Of a stretch of 64,000 nucleotides of DNA, positions 1,024 through 55,982 are shown in pieces (position 1 is the first letter of the stretch; each line of letters starts with the position of its first letter). A model generated the notes under the pieces. That model was not told the origin of the DNA and searched no databases. It saw nothing but the letters and a program-made list of their open reading frames with translations. Origin of the DNA: Lelliottia sp. JS-SCA-14 (GTDB taxonomy: Bacteria; Pseudomonadota; Gammaproteobacteria; Enterobacterales; Enterobacteriaceae); assembly GCF_035593345.1 (NCBI RefSeq), contig NZ_CP141606.1:2728001-2792000 (forward strand), read 5' to 3'. A program made the translations under genes and the position numbers.

Positions 1024-1033
1024 GGAGAGCTCC

Positions 1034-2939: not shown

Positions 2940-2951
2940 GATTTGCTGCAA

Positions 2952-3461: not shown

Positions 3462-3705
3462 TACTCAATCCTTCATTAAAATAGCGTTTGTTACGGTTAA
3501 AAAGAGTTATCTCAGCCTGCCGTGGCTGATGGAAAGATAATATAGTGTGACAGAATGGTTAACTATGAGAGGGAGATTATTTTAATGAAGGTCGTCGACT
3601 ACAGGTGTAGGACGCTATTTGTTTCTGAATAATAGATTAGCTAATTCAAAAACTAACACGGCGTGATTTAAAAATAAAGCCATCATATTGGATAGTGCTG
3701 GCCAG
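3462..3705. promoter_or_regulatory. Upstream region of the fimbrial operon
   Basis: This AT-rich 244-base gap should hold the leftward fimbrial promoter. I looked for short inverted repeats flanking an invertible promoter as in fim switches and found no convincing pair. It ends where repeat copy 1 begins. Confidence 0.35.
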
Positions 3706-4119: not shown

Positions 4120-4153
4120 CTGGGACAACCATTAATCACATCCGATGCTTTAT

Positions 4154-7753: not shown

Positions 7754-7757
7754 GGTG

Positions 7758-27174: not shown

Positions 27175-27274
27175 TTTTGCATTCCAGATAGTTATTAAAA
27201 TCAGAAATGATTTGATTATACAGTTATCGGAAAGCGTTATGTAATTCAGTCTCGATGACAACTGGAGATGCATC

Positions 27275-39699: not shown

Positions 39700-39755
39700 C
39701 CGGATGGCAGTCGCGGATTTTGTAGGTCGGGTAAGGCGCAGCCGCCACCCGACAC
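39700..39755. repeat. REP (PU-type) element
   Basis: GCCGGATGGC and GTCGGGTAAGGCGCAGCCGCCACCCGAC form the palindromic units of enterobacterial REP elements, lying between the azlD and PhnD-like convergent genes. Confidence 0.85.
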
Positions 39756-39768
39756 TGTGGGCACAACG

Positions 39769-41521: not shown

Positions 41522-41597
41522 TTCCGTAATATGACGTTATCCCACGAAGATGTGAGATAACGTCGGAAATCACAAAGAATTTAAATGGTAATGCTTT

Positions 41598-41698
41598 GCC
41601 GGATATTGCGCATTATTGCCGGGTGGCGGCTTCGCCTTACCCGGCCTACATTATTGGGTTTTGTAGGTCGGGTAAGGCGAAGCCGCCACCCGACAATG
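41598..41698. repeat. BIME (paired REP units)
   Basis: Two inverted units, GCCGGGTGGCGGCTTCGCCTTACCCGGC and GTCGGGTAAGGCGAAGCCGCCACCCGAC (given by their ends), lie about 35 bases apart between the desaturase start region and catA. As the 3' end of a 16-gene operon it may act as an mRNA stabiliser. Confidence 0.85.
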
Positions 41699-41708
41699 TC
41701 CTCGCGCG

Positions 41709-42635
41709 TTATTCCTTCACCCGCGCACGCTTGCCGCGCTCTTCTTCGTGGCTGTCGGCACTGGTCACTAAGGCGAAATCAAAACTGACCTCCGTATGCG
41801 GGCCATTAATATCGCGCTCCTGCGATACCTTGCTGTCGGTGATTTTAATTGGATCGGCGATCAGCTCTTCGCGGGTGGCAAAGGCAAAATCGTCCCACAG
41901 ATATTCATCGCCGTTGAGGTTAATCTGAGTGGTGAGATGTTTAAAGCCCGGCGCGGAGACAAAGAAATGCACATGCGCCGGGCGATTGCCGTGACGCCCC
42001 AGCCCATTGAGCAGTTTTTGCGTTGGTCCATCCGGCGGGCAGCCGTAGCCGCATGGCACGATGCTGCGCACCGCGTAGCGACCATCCGCGCCGGTTTTTA
42101 CGCGGCGGCGGAGGTTGTATTCGCTCTGCGACGCATCAAAGAACGAGTAGCCGCCGAGCGTGTTGGCGTGCCAGATATCGACAATCGCCCCGGCCACCGG
42201 TTTGCCGTGCAGATCGGTGATGGTCCCGTGCAGCCACATGGTTTCGGCCTTCTCGCTACCGTCGTCCATGCGGGCGTAACCCTCACTCAATGGCGCGTTC
42301 GCCACGTACAGCGGCCCTTCGATGGTGCGCGGCGTGCCGACGTCATTGCCCGTCGCCGCCTCTTTCTCGTCGGCACGCATATCGAGGTAATGCTCCAGCC
42401 CGAGCCCTGCCGCCAGCAGCGCCGCCTCTTTGCGCTCGCCGAGTTCGTTGAGATAATTCACCGCCAGCCAGAACTCTTCGTCGGTGATATCGAACTTTTT
42501 AATGGTCGCGCACAGGTCACCGAGGAGCTGATGCATAATCGTTTTAAAACGCTCGTTACCCTGGGCAGAATTTAATCCGCTGCTGATGGCGAGTAATGTT
42601 TCCAGTTCGGTTTGTTTGGTTGGATTGACTGACAT
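41709..42635 (-). CDS. catA: Catechol 1,2-dioxygenase
   Basis: A 308-residue intradiol ring-cleavage dioxygenase that opens catechol to cis,cis-muconate with non-haem Fe(III). Helical N-terminal dimerisation domain (about 1-90) and a beta-sandwich with EGPLYVANAPL, GAIVDIWHANTLGGYSFFD and YAVRSIVPCGYGCPPDGP; the iron ligands are Tyr in PLYVAN-like positions, YAVR region and His in RPAHVHFFVSAPGFKHLTTQI (His pair). It is the last gene of the leftward iac-pca-cat operon, 39 bases after catC, with a BIME downstream. Confidence 0.94.
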   Translation of the reverse strand: MSVNPTKQTELETLLAISSGLNSAQGNERFKTIMHQLLGDLCATIKKFDITDEEFWLAVNYLNELGERKEAALLAAGLGLEHYLDMRADEKEAATGNDVGTPRTIEGPLYVANAPLSEGYARMDDGSEKAETMWLHGTITDLHGKPVAGAIVDIWHANTLGGYSFFDASQSEYNLRRRVKTGADGRYAVRSIVPCGYGCPPDGPTQKLLNGLGRHGNRPAHVHFFVSAPGFKHLTTQINLNGDEYLWDDFAFATREELIADPIKITDSKVSQERDINGPHTEVSFDFALVTSADSHEEERGKRARVKE

Positions 42636-42674
42636 TGCGTATTCCTCTTGTAGGGTAAGGTTTATTATTAGGTG

Positions 42675-42965
42675 TTACGACTTTTCGGAATAAATAGATG
42701 ACGGGTGTTCGCACAAGGGCTGCACCGTGATGTCCATATACGGAAATAGCGGCAGGCCGGTTATTATCTCGTGCAGCTCCTGATTATCTTTCACCTCAAA
42801 CAGACTGACGTTGGCGTATTGCCCGACCACTCGCCAGATATGCAGCCATTTCCCTTCGCGCTGTAATTGCTGCGAATAGGCTTTTTCTCTGGCTTTTATT
42901 TCTTCTGCCTGGGCTGCGGGCAGCGTGGCGGGAATATTCACCGTCATCTCGACTTTAAATAGCAT
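42675..42965 (-). CDS. catC: Muconolactone delta-isomerase
   Basis: A 96-residue enzyme beginning MLFKVEMTVNIPATLPA, converting muconolactone to 3-oxoadipate enol-lactone. WLHIWRVVGQYANVSLFEV and LPLFPYMDITVQPL are family signatures. AGAGGAACTGAGC precedes ATG 42965; longer frames on this strand are artefacts. It follows catB with a two-base gap. Confidence 0.95.
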   Translation of the reverse strand: MLFKVEMTVNIPATLPAAQAEEIKAREKAYSQQLQREGKWLHIWRVVGQYANVSLFEVKDNQELHEIITGLPLFPYMDITVQPLCEHPSSIYSEKS

Positions 42966-42967
42966 GC

Positions 42968-44092
42968 TCAGTTCCTCTCTTTTCTGGCGTAATAACGCAG
43001 TTTGTCTTCGTCGATCTCGACGCCCAGGCCCGGCCCCTGCGGTAGGGTCACCTGGCCGTCGCGGAAATCGAGAGGGTTTGCCACGATGTCGTCTTTCAGC
43101 AGCAGCGGGCCGAACATCTCGGTGCCCCACTGCATGTTGATCGTCGACCAGGCGTGAAGAGAGGCCACCGTGCCGAGCGTCCCCTCCAGCATCGTCCCGC
43201 CGTACAGCGCCACGCCAGCGGCCTGCGCCGTATGCGCCAGCTTCAGCGCCTGCGCCGGACCGCCCGCTTTGGCGATTTTCAGGGCATAGGCCCCGGTAAA
43301 GCCGCCGCTCGCCAGGGCATAGCCGTCGTGAAGGGTTGCCACCACCTCGTCCGCCAGGATTGGCAGGGTAAAGCGCTGGCTCAGCGTAATGAGACCGCGC
43401 GCGTCCCAGAGTGGGATCGGCTGCTCGACCAGGTCGATTCCGCCCTCCTGTAACCGCGTCATGCCCTGGATCGCGCTGGTCAGATCCCACGCCTGATTCA
43501 CATCCACGCGAATGCTGACCTCATCGCCCAGCGCCGACTTGATCGCCAGGGCGTGGCGGATATCGCTGTGCAGTTCCCCCGCGCCGATTTTCAGCTTGAA
43601 GGTGTTGTGCCGCCCTTCCGCCAGCAGGCGTTTGCCCTCGTCGATGTCTTTGTGAGTGTCGCCGCTCGCCAGGGTCCAGAGCACCGGCAGACGTGGCGTG
43701 AGTGCCCCGCCGAGCAGGCTGCTGACGGGCACATTGAGCTGTTTGCCGAGCGCATCGAGAAACGCGGTTTCCAGCGCAGATTTGGCAAAGGTGTTGCCCT
43801 TGACGCTGGCGTTCATCTTCCCGGCGAGCGGTGCGACGCCGCTAAACGTCTGGCCGCACAGCAGCGGCGCGAGATAGGTTTCAATCGCCGAGCGAATGCC
43901 TTCCGGGCTTTCCGCCCCATAGCTCAGCCCGCCGATAGTGGTGGCTTCGCCCCAGCCGACCACGCCCTGCGCGCATTCCATGCGCACAATGGTCAGGGTC
44001 TGGCAGCCCATGGTCGCCATCGACAGCTTGTGCGGGCGGATGGTTGGGATATCCACCAGCCAACAGGTGATGGATTCAATGGTGAGGCTCAT
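42968..44092 (-). CDS. catB: Muconate cycloisomerase
   Basis: A 374-residue enolase-superfamily enzyme that lactonises cis,cis-muconate. N-terminal capping domain (about 1-130), then barrel with KLKIGAG (general base region), VDVNQAW (first metal Asp), VEQPIPLW and ILADEVVAT. It overlaps pcaD by 17 bases, a sign of tight operon packing. Confidence 0.93.
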   Translation of the reverse strand: MSLTIESITCWLVDIPTIRPHKLSMATMGCQTLTIVRMECAQGVVGWGEATTIGGLSYGAESPEGIRSAIETYLAPLLCGQTFSGVAPLAGKMNASVKGNTFAKSALETAFLDALGKQLNVPVSSLLGGALTPRLPVLWTLASGDTHKDIDEGKRLLAEGRHNTFKLKIGAGELHSDIRHALAIKSALGDEVSIRVDVNQAWDLTSAIQGMTRLQEGGIDLVEQPIPLWDARGLITLSQRFTLPILADEVVATLHDGYALASGGFTGAYALKIAKAGGPAQALKLAHTAQAAGVALYGGTMLEGTLGTVASLHAWSTINMQWGTEMFGPLLLKDDIVANPLDFRDGQVTLPQGPGLGVEIDEDKLRYYARKERN

Positions 44093-44855
44093 GCTCGGCT
44101 CCTGCGGTTAAAAAGGTGATCACATGCTGGTTAAACGCCGCCGCGCAGGCGACATTCGACAGGTGTGAGGCGGGTAAAATCAGACAGTGCGCGTGGGGGG
44201 CATCGACCACGATAGCTTCGGCGTCTCGCGAGGTGGTGACAGTGTCACTTTCCCCGGCAATCACCAGCATCGGGAGCGGCATTTGCGTCAGTTCATCTCG
44301 CAGATCGGCCATCGCCAGCGCGTCGCAGCAGGCGGCGTAGCCCTCGGCGGGCGTCGCGGCGAGCTGCTCAATCAGCGGATAAACCACCTCCGGATTACTG
44401 TGGCGAAACGCAGGCGTAAACCAGCGGTCGGCGGCGCTCTCGGCAACCGGGTTCATGCCCTGCGCGCGCACCGTCGCGGCACGCTCACGCCAGCCCGCCT
44501 CCTGCCCAATTCGCGCGGCGGTGTTGGCCACCACAATTCGCTGAAATCGCTCCGGCGCGTGGCGGTTGAGCCACATCCCGGTCATCCCGCCAAGCGAGAT
44601 CCCGCAAAAACAGGCCCGCTCCACGTCGAGATGATCCAGCCGGGCAATCACGTCCTGCCCGAGTCGCTCGAGGGTGACGGGCTGTTGCCCGACGGCTGAA
44701 CGCCCGTGTCCGCGCGTGTTGTAGCGCAGCACGCGAAAATGTTGCGTCAGCGCTGGGATTTGCGCCTGCCACATCTCCCAGGTAGTGCCTAACGAATTCG
44801 ACAGCACCAGCAGCGGCGCGTCCTCCGGGCCATCAAGCCGATACTCAATCTCCAT
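44076..44855 (-). CDS. pcaD: 3-oxoadipate enol-lactonase
   Basis: A 259-residue alpha/beta hydrolase that opens the enol-lactone to 3-oxoadipate. LVLSNSLGTTWEMWQAQIPAL is the family N-terminal motif, the nucleophile is in FCGISLGGMTGMW (Ser about 95), the acid in VIAGESDTVTT, and histidine in LPASHLSNV. Located between catB and pcaJ in the operon. Confidence 0.93.
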   Translation of the reverse strand: MEIEYRLDGPEDAPLLVLSNSLGTTWEMWQAQIPALTQHFRVLRYNTRGHGRSAVGQQPVTLERLGQDVIARLDHLDVERACFCGISLGGMTGMWLNRHAPERFQRIVVANTAARIGQEAGWRERAATVRAQGMNPVAESAADRWFTPAFRHSNPEVVYPLIEQLAATPAEGYAACCDALAMADLRDELTQMPLPMLVIAGESDTVTTSRDAEAIVVDAPHAHCLILPASHLSNVACAAAFNQHVITFLTAGAEHEPHH

Positions 44856-44864
44856 AGATTCTCC

Positions 44865-45527
44865 TTACGCCGTCGCGTCTTCGGTCAGCAGCGCGAACGT
44901 CAGCGCCACCGGCGTGACGGACTGCAAATACTCCGCCGTGATGTCGCCAAACAGCTCGCGCACCATCACGCCCTGCGGGGTGATATCCATCACCGCCATA
45001 TCGCTGTAGATGCGGTCGATGCAGGCCATCCCGGTCAGGGGATAGGTGCATTGCTCGACGATTTTGCACTCGCCCTTTTTGGTCAGATGTTCGGTCATCA
45101 CGAACACTTTTTTGGCCCCGATCGCCAGGTCCATCGCCCCGCCAACGGCAGGAATGGCGGACGGCGCGCCGGTGCTCCAGTTGGCGAGATCGCCCCGCGC
45201 CGAGACCTGGTAGGCCCCGAGCACACAGATATCCAGGTGCCCGCCGCGCATCATGGTGAAGGAGTCGCCGTGGTGGAAATAGCAGCCGCCCGCCAGCAAC
45301 GTCACCGGCTGTTTACCGGCGTTAATCAGCTCAGCGTCTTCCTCCCCCGGCGCAGGCGCTGGCCCCATGCCGAGAATGCCGTTTTCGCTGTGCAGGAAAA
45401 TCTCGCGGTCCGCCGGGAGATAGTTGGCAATCTGGGTCGGCATACCGATGCCGAGATTAACGTAGGCCCCCTCGGGGATGTCGCGCGCAATGCGTTCGGC
45501 AAGCTGTTGATGCGTCAATGTGTTCAC
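44865..45527 (-). CDS. pcaJ: 3-oxoadipate CoA-transferase, subunit B
   Basis: A 220-residue beta subunit. It starts with GTG at 45527 after AAGGAGATCGC; frames running further upstream overlap pcaI. Signatures: GAYVNLGIGMPTQIANYL, and SENGILGMGP with the catalytic glutamate that forms a thioester with CoA. With subunit A it transfers CoA from succinyl-CoA to 3-oxoadipate. The product, 3-oxoadipyl-CoA, needs a thiolase that is not in this window; paaJ or pcaF elsewhere could supply it. Confidence 0.93.
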   Translation of the reverse strand: MNTLTHQQLAERIARDIPEGAYVNLGIGMPTQIANYLPADREIFLHSENGILGMGPAPAPGEEDAELINAGKQPVTLLAGGCYFHHGDSFTMMRGGHLDICVLGAYQVSARGDLANWSTGAPSAIPAVGGAMDLAIGAKKVFVMTEHLTKKGECKIVEQCTYPLTGMACIDRIYSDMAVMDITPQGVMVRELFGDITAEYLQSVTPVALTFALLTEDATA

Positions 45528-46210
45528 GCGATCTCCTTGAGTGATGTGCGGGCAACCTGAATGACGCGCTGGACGAAAATCCCCGGCGTCACCACCGCTT
45601 CCGGGTCCAGCTCGCCGAGGGCCACACACTCGCTCACCTGTGCAATGGTGCAGCTCGCCGCAGCGGCCATGATTGGGCCAAAGTTGCGGCCGGTTTTGTC
45701 GTACACCAGGTTGCCCCAGCGGTCGGCTTTCAGCGCTTTGATCAGCGCGAAATCGGCTTTCAGCGGCAGTTCAAAGACGTAATCTTTGCCATCGATATGG
45801 CGCGTCTCTTTACCCCCGGCAAGCTCTGTGCCGTAACCGGTCGGCGTAAAAATGCCGCCTAATCCCGACCCGCCCGCCTGAATGCGCGCCGCGAGATTGC
45901 CCTGCGGCACCAGCTCCAGTTCGACCTCGCCGCGACGATAGAGATCGTCAAACACCCAGGAATCCACCTGACGCGGGAAGGAGCAGATCACCTTCTTCAC
46001 ACATCCGGCTTTCAGCAGCGCCGCCAGACCGTAGTCGCCGTTGCCAGCGTTGTTGCTGATGAGGGTGAGTTCGCGCGGGCGGCGGCGGATCAGGGCGTCC
46101 AGCAGATCGGACGGTTGCCCCGCCGGGCCAAAGCCGCCAACCATCACCGTCGCGCCGTCAAAAATGTCTTTCACCGCGCCATCCAGCGTGGCAATCCGTT
46201 TATCAATCAT
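45524..46210 (-). CDS. pcaI: 3-oxoadipate CoA-transferase, subunit A
   Basis: A 228-residue alpha subunit with VMVGGFGPAGQPSDLLDAL at the N-terminus and GGIFTPTGYGTELAGGKE in the centre. I start at ATG 46210 (GAGG upstream). It overlaps both neighbours by four bases, so translation of transporter, pcaI and pcaJ is coupled. Confidence 0.93.
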   Translation of the reverse strand: MIDKRIATLDGAVKDIFDGATVMVGGFGPAGQPSDLLDALIRRRPRELTLISNNAGNGDYGLAALLKAGCVKKVICSFPRQVDSWVFDDLYRRGEVELELVPQGNLAARIQAGGSGLGGIFTPTGYGTELAGGKETRHIDGKDYVFELPLKADFALIKALKADRWGNLVYDKTGRNFGPIMAAAASCTIAQVSECVALGELDPEAVVTPGIFVQRVIQVARTSLKEIA

Positions 46211-47526
46211 TCCTGAGCCTCTTTGTTGTGATTCGGCAGGCTGCGCAGGGCAATCCACGCCAGCAGGGCGTAAACCATCAGCAGAAGGGAGACCGGCCAC
46301 GAGGCGTTAAACTCCATCAGCAACGCCACCGCCAGCATTGGTCCCAGACCGCCGGAGAAGATCGATCCCACTTCGTGCCCCAGCGCCAGGCCGGAGTAGC
46401 GCACCCGCACCGGGAAGAGATCGCTCATGATGCAGGGCTGGGTGCCGATCATCGCCCCGTGGCAGAACGGCAGCCCGAGCAGCATCGCCAGCATGATCCA
46501 GCCGTACGTCCCGGTTGCGAGCAGCCAGAAGAACGGGAACGCCATCACCAGCAGGCCAATCACGCCGATGTAGTAGACCGGCTTGAGGCCGATGCGATCC
46601 GACAGCGCCCCCCAGAACAGAATCGAGAAGAACTCCACCAGCATCGCCAGGGTTACGGCGCTGATGATCTCCCCGGTGCTGATGCCGATGTGTTTGGCGT
46701 AGACCACCGAGAAGGTAAAGAAGATGTAGGACGCGCCGTTCTCCGGCAGACGCAGGGCAATCGCCTGCAGCAGCGCTTTCGGGTGTTCGCGGATAATCAC
46801 CAGCAGCGGGATTTTCTCGTGCGTGTCTTCCGGTTTGGCCTGAGTAAACGCCTTGCTCTCGCGGATGTTTTTGCGGATGTAAACGCCGACTAAAAAGATG
46901 ACGATGCTCAGCAGGAACGGCACGCGCCAGCCCCAGCTCATAAAGTCTGATTCCGGCAGTTTCTGCACCAGGTAGAACGCAAACGCCGAGAGGACAAACC
47001 CGCCAGACACCCCCATCTGGCTCCAGGCGGTGTAATACCCGCGACGTGACGCGGGCGCGTTTTCACTTAGCATCAGCACCCCGCCGCCCCACTCCCCGCC
47101 GGAGGCCACGCCCTGTAAGAAGCGCAGAATGATCAGCGACAGCGGTGCCCAGATGCCGATCTGCGCGTAGACCGGCAGGAGGCCAATTACAAAAGTGGTG
47201 GCACCCATCAGCGTCAGGGTCATGATCAGCGTCATTTTGCGGCTGTAACGATCGCCGATATGCCCGAAGACAATCCCACCCAGCGGACGGGCCAGGAAAC
47301 CCACGGCGAAACCGGAAAATGCCAGCAGCGTGCCCTGGAGCGGATCGCCGCCTACAGGGAAGAACAGCGGGCCAAACACCAGCGCCGCCGCGGTGCCGTA
47401 CAGGAAAAAGTCATACCACTCCAGCGCATTGCCCAGCACCGAGGCGATCACCAGCTTGCGCATCTGCTGCGCGTCCTGGCTGCCCGCGGCGGTGGTCACG
47501 CGGTTTTCAGTGACGACATTACTCAT
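46207..47526 (-). CDS. MFS transporter of the metabolite:proton symporter (MHS) family
   Basis: A 439-residue inner-membrane transporter with 12 predicted helices. VLGNALEWYDFFLYGTAAAL and RPLGGIVFGHIGDRYSRK are hallmarks of the MHS group (KgtP, ShiA, ProP), which import carboxylates with protons. Embedded between iacG and pcaI with a four-base overlap to pcaI, it is likely the uptake system for indole-3-acetate or a pathway intermediate. No symbol is given because I am not certain of a standard name. Confidence 0.87.
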   Translation of the reverse strand: MSNVVTENRVTTAAGSQDAQQMRKLVIASVLGNALEWYDFFLYGTAAALVFGPLFFPVGGDPLQGTLLAFSGFAVGFLARPLGGIVFGHIGDRYSRKMTLIMTLTLMGATTFVIGLLPVYAQIGIWAPLSLIILRFLQGVASGGEWGGGVLMLSENAPASRRGYYTAWSQMGVSGGFVLSAFAFYLVQKLPESDFMSWGWRVPFLLSIVIFLVGVYIRKNIRESKAFTQAKPEDTHEKIPLLVIIREHPKALLQAIALRLPENGASYIFFTFSVVYAKHIGISTGEIISAVTLAMLVEFFSILFWGALSDRIGLKPVYYIGVIGLLVMAFPFFWLLATGTYGWIMLAMLLGLPFCHGAMIGTQPCIMSDLFPVRVRYSGLALGHEVGSIFSGGLGPMLAVALLMEFNASWPVSLLLMVYALLAWIALRSLPNHNKEAQE

Positions 47527-47555
47527 AACGCGCGTCCCCTCTTGTTGTCGTGGGC

Positions 47556-48050
47556 TTACGCCTGCACATCGTCACCGACGGTGTGATAGCGGCGGTTGAA
47601 GTAGACCAGCCCGCGCGGCTGCTCGCTGATGCGGATCGCCTGCACCTGGCAGTAGAAAACGCTGTGGCTGCCCACTTCGTGACAGGTGTCGATGGTGCAG
47701 TCGAAGCTGGCGACACTTGAACTTAGGACCGGCGCGCCGCTGCTCATCACCTGCCAGCGGTCGTGGAGAAAACGCTCTTCAGAGCGCAGGCTGGCGTTGG
47801 CAAAAACACCGGAGAGATCCTGATGTTCCCCGGAGAGCACGTTGACGCACAGGGTGCCGTTCTGTTTGAAGTGCTGATGGGCGTAGGAGTTGCGGTTCAT
47901 GCACACCAGCAGCGTTGGCGGCTGGTCGGTCACGCTACAGACCGCCGAGGCGGTAAAGCCAAATTTCCCCGCCGGGCCGTCGGTGGTGATCACCGAAACC
48001 GCGCTGCCGAGCTGCGCCATCGCATTACGAAATTCTGTTTGCAGTGTCAT
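47556..48050 (-). CDS. iacG: IacG, flavin reductase of the indole-acetate pathway
   Basis: A 164-residue flavin reductase (HpaC-like) with AMAQLGSAVSVITTDGPAGKFG, FTASAVCSVTDQPPTLLVCMN (in part) and GSHSVFYCQVQ. It supplies reduced flavin to the flavin-dependent oxygenase IacA. The position between iacF and the transporter fits the known iac gene order. Confidence 0.88.
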   Translation of the reverse strand: MTLQTEFRNAMAQLGSAVSVITTDGPAGKFGFTASAVCSVTDQPPTLLVCMNRNSYAHQHFKQNGTLCVNVLSGEHQDLSGVFANASLRSEERFLHDRWQVMSSGAPVLSSSVASFDCTIDTCHEVGSHSVFYCQVQAIRISEQPRGLVYFNRRYHTVGDDVQA

Positions 48051-48060
48051 AAGTGATTCC

Positions 48061-48993
48061 TTACAAATCGATAACGAGACGGGCGCACTTCGCCCGCGAA
48101 CAACAGAGCAGGATCTGATCGCCGTCGGCTTTCTCTTCGTCGGTCAGATAGTGGTCGCGGTGATCCGGCTCGCCTTCCAGCACGTCCGTCAGGCAACTGC
48201 CGCAGATCCCCTGCTTGCACGACACATTCACTTTCAGCCCGGCCTGAGCCAGCGCCTCGACGATGGTCTGGTTTTCCAGCACTTTCACGCTGATGCCGCT
48301 GGTCGCGGCCACCACTTCAAAAGCCTTACCGCCGGTCTGCACTTCCGCGCTGAAACACTCCTGATGGATTTGCTCCTGGCGGTATCCCTGGGCTTTCGCC
48401 CGATCGGTCACCGCATCCATCAGCCGCGTCGGACCGCAGGTGTAGACGTGGGTGTTGTCGGGCACGTCGCACAGCACCGCGTCCAGATTCAGACGCTGCT
48501 CGTCGCTAAAGTGCAGGTGTACCCGTTCCGCGAAGGGGGCGTTTTCCAGCTGCGGAATGAACGCCGCCTGCGAGCGTGACCGGGCACAGTAATGCAGCGA
48601 AAAACTGCGCCCGGCGGCGTGGAGTTCCGCCGCCATCGCCAGCATCGGCGTGATGCCAATCCCGCCGCCAATCAGCAGGCTGTGGGCCGCCGCATCGTCC
48701 AGCGCAAACAGGTTGCGCGGCTCGCTGACCTGAATCTCATCCCCTTCGCGCAGGGCGTGGGCGGCGAGCGATCCGCCCGTTGAGCGTGAGACTTTCAGCA
48801 CGCCGAGCTGGTAATGCTGCGCGTCCTTAGGGTCGCTGCACAGAGAGTACGGACGAATCAGATCGGCGCTCAGATGCAGGTCGATATGCGCCCCGGCGCG
48901 AAACGTCGGGAGCGGAATGCCATCCACATGCGCCAGGGTCAGCAGGACCACCTCGCCCTGCAGCTCGCGGCGGATCACCTGTAAAGTCAGCAT
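48061..48993 (-). CDS. iacF: IacF, phthalate-dioxygenase-reductase-type electron transfer protein
   Basis: A 310-residue oxidoreductase with three modules: FMN-binding barrel with RPYSLCSDP, NAD-binding domain with GGIGITPMLAMA, and a C-terminal plant-type ferredoxin with CKQGICGSCLTD plus a later cysteine in LLCCSR. It feeds electrons from NADH to the Rieske oxygenase IacCD. Eight- to ten-base gaps to neighbours show tight operon packing. Confidence 0.9.
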   Translation of the reverse strand: MLTLQVIRRELQGEVVLLTLAHVDGIPLPTFRAGAHIDLHLSADLIRPYSLCSDPKDAQHYQLGVLKVSRSTGGSLAAHALREGDEIQVSEPRNLFALDDAAAHSLLIGGGIGITPMLAMAAELHAAGRSFSLHYCARSRSQAAFIPQLENAPFAERVHLHFSDEQRLNLDAVLCDVPDNTHVYTCGPTRLMDAVTDRAKAQGYRQEQIHQECFSAEVQTGGKAFEVVAATSGISVKVLENQTIVEALAQAGLKVNVSCKQGICGSCLTDVLEGEPDHRDHYLTDEEKADGDQILLCCSRAKCARLVIDL

Positions 48994-49002
48994 GAAAACT
49001 CC

Positions 49003-49737
49003 TTAGCGCATGAACAGACCGCCGTTGATGTCCCAGGTCGCCCCGGTGACAAACGACGCCTGTGGGGAAGCCAGCAATGCCACGGCCTGGGCGATAAACT
49101 CCGGCTCGCCGAGTTTCCCGACCGGGATCATCTGCAGCAGCCCGGCCATTTTCTCTTCCGGCACCAGGGCGTGAACCATCGGCGAATCCATCGGGCCCGG
49201 CGCGATGGCATTGACCGTCACGCCGGATTTGCTCAGCTCGCGGGCGAAGATTTTGGTCAGCGTCAAAATACCGCCCTTCGAGGCCGCGTAGTGCGCACCG
49301 GATGCCGTGCCGCCGTTCTGCCCGGCGAGCGACGCGAGGTTGATAATGCGGCCGTAGTGTTGGGCGGCGAAATAGCGCCCCAGCGTCTGGCAGCCAACGA
49401 AAGTGCCGCGCAGGTTGGTGGAGATCACCCGGTCAAACTCGTCGACGCCAATCTCCATCACCGGCGTGGCGAGGGTCAGGGCAGCGTTGTTCACCAGCAC
49501 CTGTAAGCTGCCGAAACGGGCAACGGTGGCGTCCAGCGCGCGGGTAAAATCCTCCGGCTGGCGGATATCCAGCCCCAGTGCCAGCACGTTATCGTGGTCG
49601 AGCGCGTCCGCCGCCTGCCGGGCACGCGCGGCGTCGACGTCCGTCAGCACCACCTGGAACCCCTGCTCCAGCAGGTGCGCGGCGATGACATTGCCCAGAC
49701 CGGCGGCCGCGCCGGTCACTAATGCGGTTTGCGTCAT
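49003..49737 (-). CDS. iacE: IacE, short-chain dehydrogenase/reductase
   Basis: A 244-residue SDR with TGAAAGLGNVIAAHL nucleotide motif, NNAALT, and catalytic Ser-Tyr-Lys in LASLAGQN and HYAASKGG. GAGG precedes ATG 49737. In published iac systems IacE acts after IacA in oxidising indole-3-acetate toward a dioxindole-type intermediate; the exact step is taken from memory. Confidence 0.88.
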   Translation of the reverse strand: MTQTALVTGAAAGLGNVIAAHLLEQGFQVVLTDVDAARARQAADALDHDNVLALGLDIRQPEDFTRALDATVARFGSLQVLVNNAALTLATPVMEIGVDEFDRVISTNLRGTFVGCQTLGRYFAAQHYGRIINLASLAGQNGGTASGAHYAASKGGILTLTKIFARELSKSGVTVNAIAPGPMDSPMVHALVPEEKMAGLLQMIPVGKLGEPEFIAQAVALLASPQASFVTGATWDINGGLFMR

Positions 49738-49747
49738 GAGCGATTCC

Positions 49748-50230
49748 TCACAGGATGTAGCCGATGCTGTGCAGCACATCGTCGCTGTTGACCAGGCGGA
49801 TCACCTTCTGCTGGATGCGCAGGCGGTCGCCCTCGCGCTGCAGCTGCCAGGTGATATCCGCCGCGTAATGGCGGCTGTGACCCTTGCGGTGTTCCCACAG
49901 GGACTGCGCCCCGCGCACCACCAGTAAATCGTCATTCGCTTCCAGCAGACGAAAACGCGACAGCGTGCGCAGGGTTCTGGCGCGCGGCGTGGTGGAGATC
50001 GACTCCCCGCTGTAGAGGCGATGCACGCGTTTTTCACGCATGTGGTGATCGTCGCAGGCGTAGTTCAGGGTGTTTTTGAAATCGGTCTCGTTCGGGTCGA
50101 TCGGCACCACGTACAGACCGTCGTGCTGCCACAGATCCAGCCAGGCGGTGAATTCGCCCTGATCGAGCAGGTCGCCCTCGAGGTTAATCAGGGTCACGGC
50201 GGCAAAGAGTTGAGATTCTGGCGTCATCAT
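49748..50230 (-). CDS. iacD: IacD, Rieske oxygenase beta subunit
   Basis: A 160-residue NTF2-fold small subunit of an aromatic-ring hydroxylating dioxygenase, ending TWQLQREGDRLRIQQKVIRL. LWQHDGLYVVPIDP is a family signature. Start at ATG 50230 overlaps the iacC stop, so the two subunits are cotranslated. It stabilises the alpha hexamer or trimer and has no redox centre. Confidence 0.88.
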   Translation of the reverse strand: MMTPESQLFAAVTLINLEGDLLDQGEFTAWLDLWQHDGLYVVPIDPNETDFKNTLNYACDDHHMREKRVHRLYSGESISTTPRARTLRTLSRFRLLEANDDLLVVRGAQSLWEHRKGHSRHYAADITWQLQREGDRLRIQQKVIRLVNSDDVLHSIGYIL

Positions 50231-51540
50231 TGTTCGCTCTCCGTCATCAGTTTTTTCCACTGCTGGTAGGCGGCGCGCATTCCGGTTTCGGCGCTGACAT
50301 CGCTGCGCAGCCCGTCGTCGGTGCGGTACTCGCCCGCCAGCCCGCGATTGAGCATGATCCACAGGTCGTCGCCCGCCGTGGCGCCGCGCTGTACGCGCTC
50401 CCAGGCTTCCGAGTCGTCCGGCGTGCCGAAGCCCATCGGCCCCTGGAAGTGTTCGTGCAGACGCAGGCGCGCCTGGTTAGCGATGTCTGGCCCGCCGTCC
50501 ATGGTGATCACCGCGTGGTGGATTTCGGTTTCGTTGACCGACACCGGCTGGAGCACGCGGAAGAAGGCCATCGAACAGGCGATGTTCGGGAAGATATTGA
50601 GGTTAAAACCGGAGCCGCCGACGGCGCGCACGATGCGACGCACCTGCTGTTCGTCGTGGTCGGCGCGCAGGGCCTCGGCCAGTTCTTCAAAGCGCTCGGG
50701 GATCGGTGCGTCGAGATTGGCCTCGAGATCCACTAATTCCGGGATCATCACCATCACGCTGTGGCCATTGCCGAGATCTTCCACGTAGCCGCTGCCGTCG
50801 ACGAAGTTGAGCATCTCTTCGGTCTGCTTATCGACGGAGCTTAAGAATGAGCGGTGCACCACCGGGAAGTGGTAGCCGTCGGTGGTGTTTTCGAGCTGGA
50901 TTTTCCAGTTGCCGGGGAAGCGGAAGCGGTGCGCCGGGCCGGTTTTGATCGGATAGCCCGCGCCCTGCTTCATAAACAGATCCATCCACTTTTTCGCCGC
51001 GCCGAGGAAATCTTCCAGGGGTTCAATCTGCTCGTTAAAGGTGGCGAAAATCATCCCCGCGTACTGTTCCGTGCGCAGGGAAACCAGCCCCAGTTCGCCT
51101 TTTTCCAGCCGATCCGCGTAGCTTTCCGGGTGCGGCACGCCGCGCAGGCTGCCGTCCAGGGCATAGCCCCAGCCGTGGTACGGGCAGACGAAGCTGTTGG
51201 TTTTCCCGCTGCGGTGTTCGCACACGGTCGCCGCGCGGTGACGGCAGCGGTTGAGCAGCGTGTGGACGGTGCCTTTGCGATCGCGTACCACGATCACCGG
51301 CTGAGTACCCAGCTCGGTGGTTTTGAAGCTGCCGGTCTCCGGGATTTCACTGGCGTGCGCCACCCACACCCAGGTCTTGCTGAAGATGCGATCCAGCTCG
51401 AGCTGGAACAGGCTGTCGGAGGTATAAAGCGAGGTGTGGACGCGGTCGCTTTGTACCAGCCCGGCAATCTCTGCCGATGTCGGCAGAGAGTGCGGCGTGG
51501 TGTCGATATTTTTAATGGTGATCAGGTGATCGCAATTCAT
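50227..51540 (-). CDS. iacC: IacC, Rieske oxygenase alpha subunit
   Basis: A 437-residue catalytic subunit. The Rieske 2Fe-2S site is CRH (Cys99, His101) and CPYHGW (Cys119, His122). The mononuclear iron site is in ENTTDGYHFPVVH (about 215-230), with the bridging aspartate in the same stretch. It would hydroxylate the aromatic ring of a pathway intermediate to yield catechol with IacD and IacF. It overlaps iacI by four bases and iacD by four bases. Confidence 0.92.
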   Translation of the reverse strand: MNCDHLITIKNIDTTPHSLPTSAEIAGLVQSDRVHTSLYTSDSLFQLELDRIFSKTWVWVAHASEIPETGSFKTTELGTQPVIVVRDRKGTVHTLLNRCRHRAATVCEHRSGKTNSFVCPYHGWGYALDGSLRGVPHPESYADRLEKGELGLVSLRTEQYAGMIFATFNEQIEPLEDFLGAAKKWMDLFMKQGAGYPIKTGPAHRFRFPGNWKIQLENTTDGYHFPVVHRSFLSSVDKQTEEMLNFVDGSGYVEDLGNGHSVMVMIPELVDLEANLDAPIPERFEELAEALRADHDEQQVRRIVRAVGGSGFNLNIFPNIACSMAFFRVLQPVSVNETEIHHAVITMDGGPDIANQARLRLHEHFQGPMGFGTPDDSEAWERVQRGATAGDDLWIMLNRGLAGEYRTDDGLRSDVSAETGMRAAYQQWKKLMTESEQ

Positions 51541-52073
51541 GTCTGGTTCTCCTGCACGTTTTCTTTTTTATCAGGGACAGGTAATTCATCCGCCGCATGC
51601 CAGCGGTCCACCGGTCGGCTGAACAGGTTGCGGGTGGTGAAGTGGCGCATCGCCATGCCGTTTGCCTCGCGCACAAAGGTGACGCAGATTTCCGCCGCGT
51701 TGAGGTGCGCGCCCCCGGCGGTAAATTCCGAGGTTTGCAGCATCAGCCAGCGCCCGCGCAGTTCGCCGTCCGGCGTATGGCCCAGCGCTTCCGAGCACAG
51801 GAAATGCGCGTTGAGGGCAAAGTGCGCGGGCTGTCGTACGTAGCTTGCCATCATGGTGACTATCGCCTCGCGCCCCAGGTGTTTACCGAGGCGGGTAGCG
51901 TAGGGTTCGCCGAGCCCTTCCCAGCAGGCGTCGGCGGTAAAGAGCGCGCCAATCGCCTGCACGGTGTCGGTGCTGTCGAGCTGGTCGCACAGGCGCATGT
52001 AATCGCTGATGCACACCCGCGCCGCCTGGCTGTCTTCGAGCTGCTGTAAGCGCAGCGCATCCTGTGCGTTCAT
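51537..52073 (-). CDS. iacI: IacI, SnoaL/NTF2-like protein
   Basis: A 178-residue protein of the NTF2-like (SnoaL_4) fold, LEDSQAARVCISDYMRLCDQ with LFTADACWEGLG, and RGRWLMLQTSEF in the core. Function is unproven; the NTF2 fold and the position beside iacC suggest a hydrolytic or isomerase helper, or an extra beta-like subunit. It lies between iacB and iacC, which differs from some Pseudomonas arrangements where iacI lies elsewhere (from memory). Confidence 0.82.
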   Translation of the reverse strand: MNAQDALRLQQLEDSQAARVCISDYMRLCDQLDSTDTVQAIGALFTADACWEGLGEPYATRLGKHLGREAIVTMMASYVRQPAHFALNAHFLCSEALGHTPDGELRGRWLMLQTSEFTAGGAHLNAAEICVTFVREANGMAMRHFTTRNLFSRPVDRWHAADELPVPDKKENVQENQT

Positions 52074-52077
52074 GGTC

Positions 52078-52437
52078 TTAGCCCTGGATAATCAGTTCGC
52101 GGCCCACGCGGGCTTCGATTTTGCAGTACTTCCACAGTTTGCTGCCGCCCTCGCCCACCGGCGTGGTGCGGAACAGGTTGCAGACGGCGGCGACGTTCTC
52201 CAGTTTCTCGGCGTCCGCCAGCACGTAGGTGGTCCAGGGCGCGGTGGTGGACGGGCCGACCATCAGCTGGTCGTCATCCATGTTGCCGATGACGCGAATG
52301 CCTGGGGTCTCTTCGATCCCTTTCATCATCACGCCGAAAGCGCCCCACACCTGTTTGGCTTCCGCCGGGCTGGCGTCGAAAAAGTTCTGATTTACCCCGA
52401 TGCAAAACAGCACACGTAACGTTGTTGACTGGCTCAT
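52078..52437 (-). CDS. iacB: IacB, small ferredoxin-like-fold protein of unknown function
   Basis: A 119-residue protein beginning MSQSTTLRVLFCIGVNQNFF, with AKQVWGAFGVMMKGIEETPG and LWKYCKIEARVGRELI. The fold is probably a dimeric alpha-beta barrel. IacB is conserved in iac clusters but without a firmly assigned role. AAGGAG precedes ATG; four-base gap to iacI. Confidence 0.83.
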   Translation of the reverse strand: MSQSTTLRVLFCIGVNQNFFDASPAEAKQVWGAFGVMMKGIEETPGIRVIGNMDDDQLMVGPSTTAPWTTYVLADAEKLENVAAVCNLFRTTPVGEGGSKLWKYCKIEARVGRELIIQG

Positions 52438-52459
52438 CTGTTGCTCCTTACGTTAAAAA

Positions 52460-53587
52460 TCACAAGTAACCGGGCAGCGGTTTGCCGCCGAAAAAGACCG
52501 TACCGGCGTTGAGGTATGAGAGATCGCCCATAAAGGCGTGCTGGGTGATCACCATAGTGTCGCGGACAAAACGCTGCAGCGGACTGGTGAGCGTGACGCC
52601 GCCCATGCCGTTCAGCGCCAGCGCCTGGCGGGCCACGTCGGCGGCGACGCGGGTGACGTGGGTCGATGAAAGTCTGAGCGCATTAATCTGCTCGCAGCTT
52701 GCGTCGTCCCCGACCAGCAGGCTTTGCCAGGCGTCGTCGATGGCTTCGTAGAACCAGGCGCGGGCGGAGCGCAGTTCGGCTTCGCAGCGGGCAATTTGCA
52801 TCTGTGCCTGCTGGCGGTCGGCCAGACGCGGCGCGCCGGTTACCGACTGCTGACGATGGGCGATGGCATAGATTTCGTTGAGCGCCGCGCGGGCCACCCC
52901 GAGTGCCACCACGGAGAGCACCTGGGTCGCAAGCGACAGCACCGGATAGCGGTACAGCGGCCCCTCAAGATTCAGCGCCCCGCCGCGAATAAAGGTCCAC
53001 TCGTGCGGGACGAAAACATCGTTGACCACCAGATCGTGGCTGCCGGTTCCGGCGAGGCCGACCGTGTCCCAGACGGGATCGATCTGCACGCTGGCCCGCG
53101 GCAGAACCGCCATGCGCGGCAGGGCCTGATCGGCGTCCGGCAAAATCCCGACGCCCAGCACCGAGGCGCCCATGCTGCCACTGGCAAAGCTCCAGCGTCC
53201 GCTGACGCGATACCCGCCGTCGGCCTGAGTGGCTTTTTGCGTCGGGAAGATGCCGCCCGCAAAGACCACGTCCGGCCCGTCGCGGTAGAGTTCCTGCAGG
53301 GTGTCAGGCGGCAGCGCGCCGAGGTAAAACGGGCTCATGCCAAAACTCGCCACCCAGCCTGCGGAGCCGTCGGCAGTGGAGATTTGCTCCACCAGCTCGC
53401 AAAACTGCGCCGGGGAGCATTCGTCGCCGCCGTAGATTTTCGGCACCAGCGCGCGGTAGACGCCCACCTGTCTGAAACGGGCGATGATGTCGTCAGAGAT
53501 ATGACGTTGATGCTCAAACTCCCGGCTGCGAGCCGCGACATCACTCAGAAGCGGAACAAGTTCTTCACGAACAGGAATGGCAGACAT
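52460..53587 (-). CDS. iacA: IacA, flavin-dependent indole-3-acetate oxygenase
   Basis: A 375-residue acyl-CoA-dehydrogenase-fold monooxygenase (HsaA/indole oxygenase type). GGAGGACGCC precedes ATG 53587; a longer frame begins at 53653. Signatures: ARFRQVGVYRALVPKIYGG, GSAGWVASFG, WSFASGSMGASVLGVG and GLAGTGSHDLVV. It carries out the first attack on indole-3-acetate and can turn indole into indigo in known systems. It needs reduced flavin from IacG. There are 93 bases between it and iacH. Confidence 0.92.
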   Translation of the reverse strand: MSAIPVREELVPLLSDVAARSREFEHQRHISDDIIARFRQVGVYRALVPKIYGGDECSPAQFCELVEQISTADGSAGWVASFGMSPFYLGALPPDTLQELYRDGPDVVFAGGIFPTQKATQADGGYRVSGRWSFASGSMGASVLGVGILPDADQALPRMAVLPRASVQIDPVWDTVGLAGTGSHDLVVNDVFVPHEWTFIRGGALNLEGPLYRYPVLSLATQVLSVVALGVARAALNEIYAIAHRQQSVTGAPRLADRQQAQMQIARCEAELRSARAWFYEAIDDAWQSLLVGDDASCEQINALRLSSTHVTRVAADVARQALALNGMGGVTLTSPLQRFVRDTMVITQHAFMGDLSYLNAGTVFFGGKPLPGYL

Positions 53588-53680
53588 GGCGTCCTCCGAA
53601 AAGGGTTGTGCGGTGCGCGCAAGGCGAGCGCGGCCGCAATGAGTCGTACTCACTGAGTCATCGGGTAAGAAAAACGGGAA

Positions 53681-54805
53681 TTACGCTTGTCGTCGGCCCG
53701 TGAGCCACTCGACGGCCTGCACCAGCAGCCCGTCGTGGCCTTTGGCGGCAATCAGCTGGAGCGAAACCGGACGCCCACGCCGTTCAGCCACCGCAAGCGT
53801 GATGGCCGGATGGCCGCTGAGGTTGAACGGCCTGACCAGCCGCGTGAGGTTCACCACGCCGAGCGGATCGGCGGCTTCCTCAAGCGTCGGCGGCAGTTCC
53901 GGCAGCGTCGCCAGCGCCAGCAGCGGGGTTTTTGCAAGCAGTGCGTCGACCTGCGCGGTGAAGGTCGTGCGCATCTGTTCGGCGGCATCGAGCGCTTCGG
54001 CGCTGACGTCCGCCCCGGCGCGGATACGCGAGGCGACGTCCGGCGAAACCTGATGGCCCGACAGCAGCGGGCTGAACGCCTGCCAGTTTTCGTGGCTGAT
54101 GAGGGTTAAGCCTGCCCGGTGGGCATCATTCAGATCCGGGAGTGGCGCCTGTTGCGGCGTCACGCCCTGCTGTTCAAGGAAATTCAGAAGCGTTGCGTCG
54201 ATGTCTTCTGACGCGGCGGAGATAAACGCCATCGCCGGCAGCGCGTCCAGCGGCTCGCCGACGGGTACGGAAAGCCGGGTCATCGCCTGGCGCAACACCG
54301 CGGCGTCGCTCGCAAAAACGCCGACACAGTCGAGAGAGCTTTGGGCAGGCATCACGCCGTCACGGCTGAGCACGCCGAAGCCGGGTTTGAATCCGAGAAT
54401 TCCGCAGCAGGCGGCGGGCATTCTGACGGAGCCGCCGGTGTCGGTGCCCAGCGAAAAATCGACGTCACCGGAGGCGACCACGGCGGCAGAGCCGCTGGAC
54501 GAGCCGCCCGGAATCAGCGCCGGATAGCGCGGGTTAACCGGCGTGCCGCTCCAGGGGTTGATCCCGGTGACGCCAAACGCCAGCTCATGCAGCGTGGTTT
54601 TGCCCGTCAGCCGGCAGCGCTTTTCGAGTAGCGTCGATACGACCCTGGCGTGCTGCCCCGCAACCGGGACATTTGCCAGCGCCGGACAGCCTGCGCGGGT
54701 CTGATACCCGGCGACGTCCAGGGTGTCTTTCACCGCGAATCGCAGGTCGCCCTCGCCGAGGACGAATTGCTCAACGTAACCATTGCTCTCATAAACTGGC
54801 TTCAT
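53681..54805 (-). CDS. iacH: IacH, amidase-signature hydrolase
   Basis: A 374-residue amidase with Lys in RFAVKDTLDVAG, the Ser-rich GGSSSGSAAVVASG, and catalytic Ser in TDTGGSVRMPAACCG. It begins the iac operon; AAGG precedes ATG 54805. IacH is the amidohydrolase of known iac clusters, presumably opening an amide after the indole ring is oxidised. It is shorter than typical amidases (about 450-500) but the signature is intact. Confidence 0.9.
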   Translation of the reverse strand: MKPVYESNGYVEQFVLGEGDLRFAVKDTLDVAGYQTRAGCPALANVPVAGQHARVVSTLLEKRCRLTGKTTLHELAFGVTGINPWSGTPVNPRYPALIPGGSSSGSAAVVASGDVDFSLGTDTGGSVRMPAACCGILGFKPGFGVLSRDGVMPAQSSLDCVGVFASDAAVLRQAMTRLSVPVGEPLDALPAMAFISAASEDIDATLLNFLEQQGVTPQQAPLPDLNDAHRAGLTLISHENWQAFSPLLSGHQVSPDVASRIRAGADVSAEALDAAEQMRTTFTAQVDALLAKTPLLALATLPELPPTLEEAADPLGVVNLTRLVRPFNLSGHPAITLAVAERRGRPVSLQLIAAKGHDGLLVQAVEWLTGRRQA

Positions 54806-55138
54806 GATTGATACCTTAACCAGAAAAAGTGAATCATATTCAGGCTGGCAGTCACTGCTGCCTTTTTGTCCTGACTAACGTTAGGTCAATCATGGAAGAA
54901 TTAGATGAAAATTCAAGTAATCTTTCACGTTAATTTTACGCTGACGCAACATTTTATTAACCTTTAACTCTGCAAGGTTACTGATTCAGGATGATGAAAA
55001 ATAAGACAAAATGGCGGGAAACAGAAAGCCGTGTCGCTCCGGAGATTCAGAGCGACATAAGCAATTTATGGTTGTAATTACAGAAGGTTAGAGAGAAAGA
55101 CTACGGAGTTCACAAATTTGTCATCGGATAATTTGACC
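54806..55138 (-). promoter_or_regulatory. Control region of the iac-pca-cat operon
   Basis: A 333-base AT-rich gap before iacH. CTAACGTTAG (54875-54884) is a perfect 10-base palindrome nested in TGACTAACGTTAGGTCA, which is near-symmetrical and has MarR-operator-like size. It lies 70 bases upstream of iacH, a sensible place for IacR control. No other gene is seen. Confidence 0.55.
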
Positions 55139-55612
55139 TCACAGTTCGTTGAGGTTATCCAGTACTTTGGCGAGTGACAGATTCATCTTATCGACCTGCG
55201 ACACACTCATCCCTTTGAAGCCTTTTTCGAACACTTTTTCGGTCAGGGCGTAGGCCTCTTCCACTTTTTTCAGACCGGCCTCCGTGAGCATCACTTCGGT
55301 GACGCGCGCGTCCTGTTCGCTGCTGGCGGTGGTCACCAGACCGTCATCGCGCAGCCGCCCGACGATTTTGGTGATGGTTGGCATTTTCGCCATCGCGTAT
55401 TCAGAAATTTGCGAAATGCTGGCTTTTCCGTACTGGTGCGTGACCATCAGCACCCGAAAGCGAGACACGTCCAGCTGGGCTTTTTTCAGTGTGATTTCCA
55501 TGATTTGCGTGTAGCGCGCATAAACATTCACGATCCAGTAGAACGGAAACGCTTCGCGATGAAAGGCGGGATCGTCAGGTGCGCCGTCCGGGGTATTTTT
55601 TAGAGTTGTCAT
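55139..55612 (-). CDS. iacR: IacR, MarR-family repressor
   Basis: A 157-residue MarR-type regulator with winged-helix region ISQISEYAMAKMPTITKIVGRLRDDGLVTTASSEQDARV (quoted in part as AKMPTITKIVGRLRDDGLV). AAGGAAACGC precedes ATG 55612; an upstream GTG is less likely. In characterised systems IacR represses iac genes and is released by indole-3-acetate. It is transcribed leftward just before the operon, 333 bases from iacH. Confidence 0.9.
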   Translation of the reverse strand: MTTLKNTPDGAPDDPAFHREAFPFYWIVNVYARYTQIMEITLKKAQLDVSRFRVLMVTHQYGKASISQISEYAMAKMPTITKIVGRLRDDGLVTTASSEQDARVTEVMLTEAGLKKVEEAYALTEKVFEKGFKGMSVSQVDKMNLSLAKVLDNLNEL

Positions 55613-55802
55613 GCGTTTCCTTACCAAAAAAAGCGTCAGAGTGAACGATTATACCCCGCGATCCGGCGGCGACTAAGCCTATCTGAGAGCCTGCTGAAAC
55701 GTATAAGAGATCCCGATCGCATTATGATTCAAAAATGATAAGTGATTAACAATTACGTATCATTTTTTACACATTGCGTTGACGATTGCGGTGGCTATTT
55801 TC

Positions 55803-55929
55803 TATACCCTAAATAATTCGAGTTGCAGGAAGGCGGCAAGCGTGGGAATCCCCAGGAGCTTACTTAAGTAAGTGATTGGGGTGAGCAGGCGCAGCCAACG
55901 CACCTGCAACTTGAAGTATGACGGGTATA
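55803..55929. repeat. ERIC element (127 bp)
   Basis: This imperfect palindrome begins TATACCC and ends GGGTATA, and contains the core GAATCCCCAGGAGCTTAC and AAGTAAGTGATTGGGGTGAG of enterobacterial repetitive intergenic consensus elements. The length is exactly the classical 127 bases. It lies between divergent iacR and the MFS transporter. Confidence 0.95.
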
Positions 55930-55982
55930 TACGTTTAGCGGACCTGTACGACAACTCTAATAATCGCAATGTGGAGCATTTC

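What the first reader, a model, noticed from the sequence alone, without database searches (positions are those of the whole stretch)
41709..55612. A 16-gene iac-transporter-pca-cat operon making a complete indole-3-acetate to 3-oxoadipyl-CoA route
Nine iac genes, a transporter, pcaI, pcaJ, pcaD, catB, catC and catA run in one direction; most gaps are below 30 bases or are overlaps, with iacR just upstream. The funnelling genes for catechol, normally in a separate cat operon with a LysR regulator CatR, are here placed under the iac promoter, and no catR is present. The result is a self-contained auxin-catabolic module that may help plant or soil colonisation. A thiolase is missing from the window and must be elsewhere.
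Basis: partly seen in the sequence, partly recalled or inferred. Interest (0 to 1): 0.7.

Follow-up and report, generated by a model that had tools for sequence, protein, structure and literature searches.

The report
Auxin-degradation operon with catechol genes
This stretch is a bacterial operon for eating the plant hormone auxin (indole-3-acetic acid) almost down to central metabolism; the same gene order is already published for the soil bacterium Enterobacter soli, so it is real and intact but ordinary in kind.

Summary
Sixteen co-directional genes, iacHABICDEFG-mfs-pcaIJD-catBCA, lie at 41709-54805 (minus strand), with iacR upstream at 55139-55612. All frames are open, and 13 of 15 junctions are overlaps or gaps of at most 29 nt. 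The same cluster under IacR, induced by IAA, is in print for Enterobacter soli LF7 (passages of PMC8383072). The E. soli ATCC BAA-2102 locus has the identical order. So this is a new member of a known kind, nearest to Lelliottia sp. V86_10 (97.6% DNA identity). Added here: (1) the 'missing' thiolase is a PcaF/PaaJ enzyme inside the phenylacetate cluster, so the operon is not self-contained; (2) a palindrome TTACTTGAAnnTTCA stands upstream of iacH in 35 of 35 testable enterobacterial loci, a candidate IacR operator; (3) a close copy of the HpaX-type permease divergent from iacR is in all 8 iac-positive genomes of a 36-genome genus sample and in none of the other 28; (4) the catechol tail varies and complements what each genome holds elsewhere, but there are too few independent events to prove a rule.

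The parts
55983..57365 (+). HpaX-type MFS permease divergent from iacR (ATG at 55983); likely part of the same locus
   Evidence: TIGR02332 730.8 bits, cut-off 615.4; >=85% copy in all 8 iac+ and in none of 28 iac- genomes of the genus sample; start
55139..55612 (-). iacR, MarR-family repressor
   Evidence: Pfam MarR; best PDB relative 7l19, E-value 9.9e-81, labelled Enterobacter soli ATCC BAA-2102 in PMC11630574 (passage)
54901..54920 (.). candidate IacR operator, palindrome TTANNTGAANNTTCANNTAA
   Evidence: only window match at up to 2 mismatches, 0.10 expected; only perfect match to TTACTTGAANNTTCANNTAA in the genome; core TTACTTGAANNTTCA in 35 of 35 testable enterobacterial loci
53681..54805 (-). 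iacH, amidase family
   Evidence: PF01425
52460..53587 (-). iacA, acyl-CoA-dehydrogenase-type monooxygenase (ATG start; GTG at 53653 possible)
   Evidence: PF08028; start
52078..52437 (-). iacB
   Evidence: no Pfam or NCBIfam match; the gene in the same place on a K. variicola plasmid is annotated 'IacB protein'
51537..52073 (-). iacI, SnoaL-like
   Evidence: PF13577
50227..51540 (-). iacC, Rieske oxygenase alpha subunit
   Evidence: PF00355, PF00848
49748..50230 (-). iacD, oxygenase beta subunit
   Evidence: PF00866; start
49003..49737 (-). iacE, short-chain dehydrogenase
   Evidence: PF13561; start
48061..48993 (-). iacF, ferredoxin-type reductase
   Evidence: PF00111, PF00175
47556..48050 (-). 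iacG, flavin reductase
   Evidence: PF01613
46207..47526 (-). mfs, metabolite/H+ symporter-like MFS
   Evidence: PF07690; TIGR00883 389.5 bits, below its cut-off of 443.45
45524..46210 (-). pcaI, 3-oxoacid CoA-transferase subunit A; overlaps mfs by 4 nt
   Evidence: TIGR02429 365.3 bits, cut-off 128.5
44865..45527 (-). pcaJ, 3-oxoacid CoA-transferase subunit B (GTG start)
   Evidence: TIGR02428 298.1 bits, cut-off 243.55
44076..44855 (-). pcaD, 3-oxoadipate enol-lactonase
   Evidence: TIGR02427 288.1 bits, cut-off 255.85
42968..44092 (-). catB, muconate cycloisomerase
   Evidence: TIGR02534 473 bits, cut-off 334.95
42675..42965 (-). catC, muconolactone isomerase
   Evidence: TIGR03221 148.4 bits, cut-off 130.6; start
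41709..42635 (-). catA, catechol 1,2-dioxygenase; the only intradiol dioxygenase found in the genome
   Evidence: TIGR02439; genome search with PF00775 found 1 match
41615..41697 (.). REP-like inverted repeat just after catA, possible transcript end or stabiliser
   Evidence: 36-nt arms, 94% complementary; an 18-nt core occurs 14 times in the genome, the backward control 0 times

Best explanation
An IAA-inducible catabolic operon of the type described in Enterobacter soli LF7. IacR represses one promoter in the 333-bp iacR-iacH gap by binding a palindrome at 54901-54920, and IAA releases it. The long transcript makes a transporter (mfs), IacA-I to turn IAA into catechol, CatA/CatB/CatC to turn catechol into 3-oxoadipate enol-lactone, PcaD to give 3-oxoadipate and PcaIJ to give 3-oxoadipyl-CoA. 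[quoted passage not shown] Shown here: gene content, order, tight packing, conservation of the operator-like site, place of the thiolase gene. Inferred: repression and induction in this strain, use of PaaJ, substrates of the two permeases. The enzyme steps are pathway knowledge, not tested here.
For: Gene identities and packing. The 4-nt overlap of mfs and pcaI leaves no gap for a promoter, and no sigma-70-like site lies inside the operon. The full order is found in 11 of the 37 distinct enterobacterial genomes compared, the window's own included. Published control of the same cluster in E. soli LF7 (PMC8383072, passages). IacR closest to 7l19. One intradiol dioxygenase, one PcaI-class gene and one PcaF-type thiolase found in the genome; the thiolase, at G000:C1:2318349-2319548, stands in a run whose PaaA, C, D, F, G, H and K all pass their NCBIfam cut-offs.
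Against: No expression, binding or growth data for this strain. The operator is a footprint only. The 93-nt (or 27-nt) iacH-iacA gap and the 39-nt catC-catA gap could hide promoters of another type. Terminator-like sites are in excess in 41500-56100 (22 against 14.2, sd 3.0), 7 of them on the operon strand inside the operon, with stems of 5-7 pairs, so attenuation along the transcript is not excluded. The primary paper (AEM.01057-18) is not held and was seen only as summarised in another paper.
Confidence: 0.92

Rival explanations
1. Two adjacent transcription units: iac genes under IacR, and pcaIJD-catBCA from a separate internal promoter that also answers to other catechol sources.
For: In relatives the tail is modular: catBCA, catB+catA, catA alone or no cat gene can follow, and related cat genes exist as separate loci with an IclR-type regulator. 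Terminator-like sites are in excess in the region.
Against: mfs and pcaI overlap by 4 nt and no sigma-70-like site lies inside; no catechol regulator gene stands beside the operon; in E. soli the whole set is reported under IacR.
Confidence: 0.06
2. The locus degrades another indole or aryl-acetate rather than IAA as main substrate.
For: The divergent permease is of the 4-hydroxyphenylacetate (HpaX) family.
Against: All nine iac genes are present and their products are 77-94% identical to those of the E. soli locus L044; IacR is closest to the E. soli IacR structure, which PMC9613470 counts among IAA-binding IacR proteins (passage).
Confidence: 0.03

Closest known systems
iacHABICDEFG-mfs-pcaIJD-catBCA cluster of Enterobacter soli LF7 (Greenhut et al. 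2018, seen through passages of PMC8383072)
   Same: Same 16 genes, same order, MarR-type iacR upstream; the E. soli ATCC BAA-2102 locus (L044) also shares the hpaX-type, AraC-type and GAPDH genes on one side and the desaturase and PhnD-like genes on the other
   Different: 81.0% DNA identity over the cluster; different organism
Lelliottia sp. V86_10 iac locus (L036)
   Same: Same order, 97.6% DNA identity over the whole cluster
   Different: Nothing of substance seen
iac cluster of Pseudomonas putida 1290 (iacABCDEFG-R-HI)
   Same: Same nine iac genes and iacR
   Different: Other gene order; catechol genes lie upstream as a catR-catBCA cluster (PMC6624763, passages)
pcaIJFD-catBCA-benABCD locus of Shimwellia pseudoproteus (L170; the name ben is recalled)
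   Same: Same pcaIJ-D-catBCA order; in the catA tree its catA is sister to the 20 iac-linked catA (98/91)
   Different: Has pcaF between pcaJ and pcaD, is followed by ben-type genes, has an IclR-type regulator and no iac genes

Membership tests
iac-type IAA catabolic locus | iacA-I genes present and intact | tested here: met
iac-type IAA catabolic locus | IacR of the MarR family beside the operon | tested here: met
iac-type IAA catabolic locus | IAA degraded to catechol; iacA required | not testable with these tools
   needs culture; reported for relatives (passages)
E. soli-type extended iac operon | mfs-pcaIJD-catBCA directly after iacG on the same strand | tested here: met
E. soli-type extended iac operon | whole set induced by IAA and controlled by IacR | not testable with these tools
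   reported for LF7 as summarised in PMC8383072
[quoted passage not shown]
   no thiolase in the operon; the PcaF/PaaJ-type gene is in the paa cluster
iad-type IAA locus (anthranilate route) | iad gene set | not tested
   no iad genes were searched for; the genes present fit iac

The most novel reading that the evidence does not exclude
In Enterobacteriaceae the iac operon is a fixed core (iacR-iacHABICDEFG, mostly with mfs) with an adjustable catechol tail that keeps only the steps the rest of the genome lacks: pcaIJD sits in the operon in all 11 genomes without a separate pcaI and in 0 of 26 genomes with one; catC is in the operon in 20 genomes, 19 of which have no other catC; and the thiolase can be left out because another PcaF-type gene, in this genome that of the phenylacetate cluster, supplies it. 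The iac-linked catA form one clade, as if the catechol genes were captured once and then trimmed or extended. Auxin use would then depend on the phenylacetate gene paaJ, linking two aryl-acetate pathways, with a conserved HpaX-type permease as second uptake route.
Probability: 0.35. Interest if true: 0.45.

Novelty: new member of a known kind. Interest (0 to 1): 0.28.

Why it matters
It confirms a published operon type in a further organism and gives testable additions: the thiolase source, a candidate IacR operator sequence for the family, a second candidate permease, and a family-wide view of how a peripheral pathway gains or sheds its funnelling genes. Auxin degradation by root bacteria bears on plant growth, so knowing which genomes hold a working route to central metabolism is of practical use.

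Tried and rejected
Considered that pcaIJD-catBCA might be a separate operon: judged unlikely for want of a gap or promoter-like site. Considered that the HpaX-type gene is under IacR: its upstream region has a conserved promoter-like block of its own but not the TTACTTGAA palindrome, so not claimed. Looked for IacR operators elsewhere in the genome, to link paaJ to IacR: one perfect site; the two other places (3 matches, 2 mismatches each) are no more than the 3 matches of the control pattern. Rfam gave no match in the window. The near-identity search gave no match in E. coli genomes; in plasmids 11 records matched, 9 of them (6 Klebsiella) at 60-80% over parts of the query and 2 Paracoccus over 40 bases at 95%. 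The complementarity of tail and genome was put on the tree and cannot reach significance: at most 3 independent pairs. The pcaI tree was too poorly supported to tell whether pcaIJD came with catBCA or later, and the catB tree does not separate Shimwellia's catB from the iac-linked ones. A Lelliottia isolate in PMC7481731 has the row '- + -' under headings outside the passage seen, so it is no evidence of IAA use.
Full report
What is there. The minus strand of 41709-54805 carries sixteen intact genes in the order iacH, A, B, I, C, D, E, F, G, mfs, pcaI, J, D, catB, C, A, and iacR lies upstream at 55139-55612 on the same strand. Pfam and NCBIfam support the names, except IacB, which matches neither library. 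Thirteen of 15 junctions are overlaps or gaps of at most 29 nt; the exceptions are iacH-iacA (93 nt, or 27 nt with a GTG start) and catC-catA (39 nt). No sigma-70-like site was found inside the operon, and mfs and pcaI overlap by four bases. Against this, terminator-like sites are somewhat in excess (22 against 14.2, sd 3.0, in 41500-56100), seven of them on the operon strand inside it, with short stems. A REP-like inverted repeat lies just after catA; an 18-nt core of it occurs 14 times in the genome, against 0 for the control.

What is known. The passage of PMC8383072 that I saw states that E. soli LF7 has iacHABICDEFG with pcaIJD-catBCA downstream, and that the whole set iacHABICDEFG-mfs-pcaIJD-catBCA is controlled by IacR and up-regulated by IAA, citing Greenhut et al. 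2018. That paper itself is not held. The public E. soli ATCC BAA-2102 locus (L044) has the same 17 genes in the same order; that this strain and LF7 are the same is recalled, not looked up. The nearest solved structure to the window's IacR is 7l19, which PMC11630574 labels E. soli ATCC BAA-2102 (passage); PMC9613470 reports structures of IAA-binding IacR from P. putida, E. soli and A. baumannii (passage). The nearest named genome found is Lelliottia sp. V86_10, 97.6% identical over the cluster; the window's genus is inferred from that. In a family sample, 21 of 392 genomes, in 10 of 154 genera, hold a close IacA (E <= 1e-120).

The missing thiolase. The genome was searched with the Thiolase_N model (9 matches, none in the window; four score 195 bits or more). 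One of these four, G000:C1:2318349-2319548, is a 3-oxoadipyl-CoA thiolase (TIGR02430, 726 bits, cut-off 597); the other three fit FadA, FadI and an acetyl-CoA acetyltransferase type. It lies in the phenylacetate cluster: PaaA, PaaC, PaaD, PaaF, PaaG, PaaH and PaaK around it all pass their NCBIfam cut-offs. It is the only such match in the genome at E <= 1e-180. So the operon ends at 3-oxoadipyl-CoA and the last step most likely uses PaaJ. That use is inference.

Regulation. In the iacR-iacH gap a palindrome TTACTTGAAnnTTCAnnTAA (read on the minus strand) stands at 54901-54920. In its symmetric form it is the only match in the window at up to two mismatches (0.10 expected), and it is the only perfect match in the genome. 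Its core TTACTTGAAnnTTCA was found upstream of iacH in 35 of the 36 enterobacterial loci that hold iacH, two of them Klebsiella plasmid records; the exception, L046, is cut off at the contig end. Three further loci without a recognisable iacH have no match anywhere, and none of the 62 other loci (L052-L113) has one. The two Klebsiella records and four chromosomal loci (L051, L217, L218, L220) carry the fully symmetric ACTTGAAnnTTCAAGT form. It is the best candidate for the IacR operator. One literature search for it (28 papers with three of four terms, 10 listed, none opened for this) does not tell whether it is in print; the primary E. soli paper may give it.

A second permease. The gene divergent from iacR (ATG at 55983) is an HpaX-type permease (TIGR02332, 730.8 bits, cut-off 615.4). 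In the sample of 36 genomes of the genus (own plus 35, as the tool groups them; a few incomplete), the 8 with IacA at 85% or more all have a copy at 85% or more, and the other 28 have none above 70% (the 25 best candidates per genome were scored). In the 37-genome set it stands beside iacR in 27; of the other ten, L046 is cut and L221-L223 have no recognisable iacR. It is present in 26 of 26 testable loci whose operon holds any cat gene. It probably belongs to the locus. Its own upstream region lacks the palindrome, so its control is unknown.

The variable tail. The 37 distinct enterobacterial genomes are the 22 (own, 16 named ones, 5) and 15 new ones. What follows the iac genes is pcaIJD-catBCA in 11, catBCA in 9, catB+catA in 3, catA alone in 4 and no cat gene in 10, one of these (L223) cut by the contig end. 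Genome-wide counts with curated models: the 11 genomes with pcaI in the operon have no other match to TIGR02429, and all 26 others have one of 360 bits or more elsewhere (further matches at 212-263 bits, taken as AtoD-like from recall, and below 53 bits were left out). Of the 20 with catC in the operon 19 have no other catC, the exception being Kluyvera sichuanensis; of the 17 without it 16 have one elsewhere and one, a 73%-complete genome, has none. The second set of 15 was looked at after the pattern had been seen in the first 22 and fitted it, but held no new case with pcaIJD in the operon. On a tree of IacA, IacC, IacE and IacF the full form needs three changes, and well supported branches force only one; at most three independent pairs exist, so no test can reach significance. 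The pattern is therefore a description, and shared descent may explain all of it.

Origin of the tail. In the catA tree the 20 iac-linked sequences of the first set form one group (100/97) whose sister is the catA of Shimwellia's pcaIJFD-catBCA-ben locus (98/91), apart from the other seven separate catA. The tool flags the Shimwellia row as a long branch whose place is unsure, and in the catB tree it falls unresolved among the iac-linked ones. A single capture from such a locus, with loss of pcaF, is the simplest story, not a proof. The pcaI tree is too weak to test it. The four separate cat loci whose regulator I scanned have a divergent IclR-type one, not a LysR-type CatR.

Verdict. A real, intact operon of a kind already described in E. 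soli. The additions above are modest but testable.

Noticed in passing
window 55803-55929: A 127-bp element with 27-nt imperfect terminal inverted repeats between iacR and the hpaX-type gene, also in Lelliottia V86_10 but absent from the other 12 loci aligned; looks like a MITE-type insertion.
   Followed up: partly
window 39715-39758 and 41615-41699: REP-like repeat TGTAGGTCGGGTAAGGCG, 14 exact copies in the genome, on either side of the desaturase/PhnD-like gene pair downstream of catA.
   Followed up: partly
L180 (Klebsiella variicola plasmid pRHBSTW-00883_2): A plasmid typed as conjugative (IncFIB, IncFII) carries iacR-iacHABICDEFG with no annotated catechol genes beside it, so the iac core can travel without the tail; a further copy with an MFS gene is on a 568-kb Klebsiella aerogenes record labelled plasmid.
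   Followed up: partly
L170: Shimwellia pseudoproteus has pcaIJFD-catBCA-ben in one run with an IclR-type regulator.
   Followed up: yes
L045, L046, L050 (Buttiauxella): catB and catA follow mfs without catC; catC is in a separate catBCA-ben locus.
   Followed up: yes
L221-L223: Three family members have a rearranged iac cluster (iacC, D, E, F, mfs, A, B, G) without recognisable iacH, iacI or iacR at the thresholds used.
   Followed up: no
window 280-8390: Two PapD-type pilus chaperones, then a large hybrid sensor kinase with solute-binding domains and a LuxR-type response regulator.
   Followed up: no
window 26296-27297 and 32822-33748: Two LysR-type regulators, the nearer about 8 kb beyond catA; no sign that either serves the cat genes.
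   Followed up: no
window 18553-19236: A protein of the chloramphenicol acetyltransferase family (PF00302, 301.9 bits); no mobile-element context was looked for.
   Followed up: no
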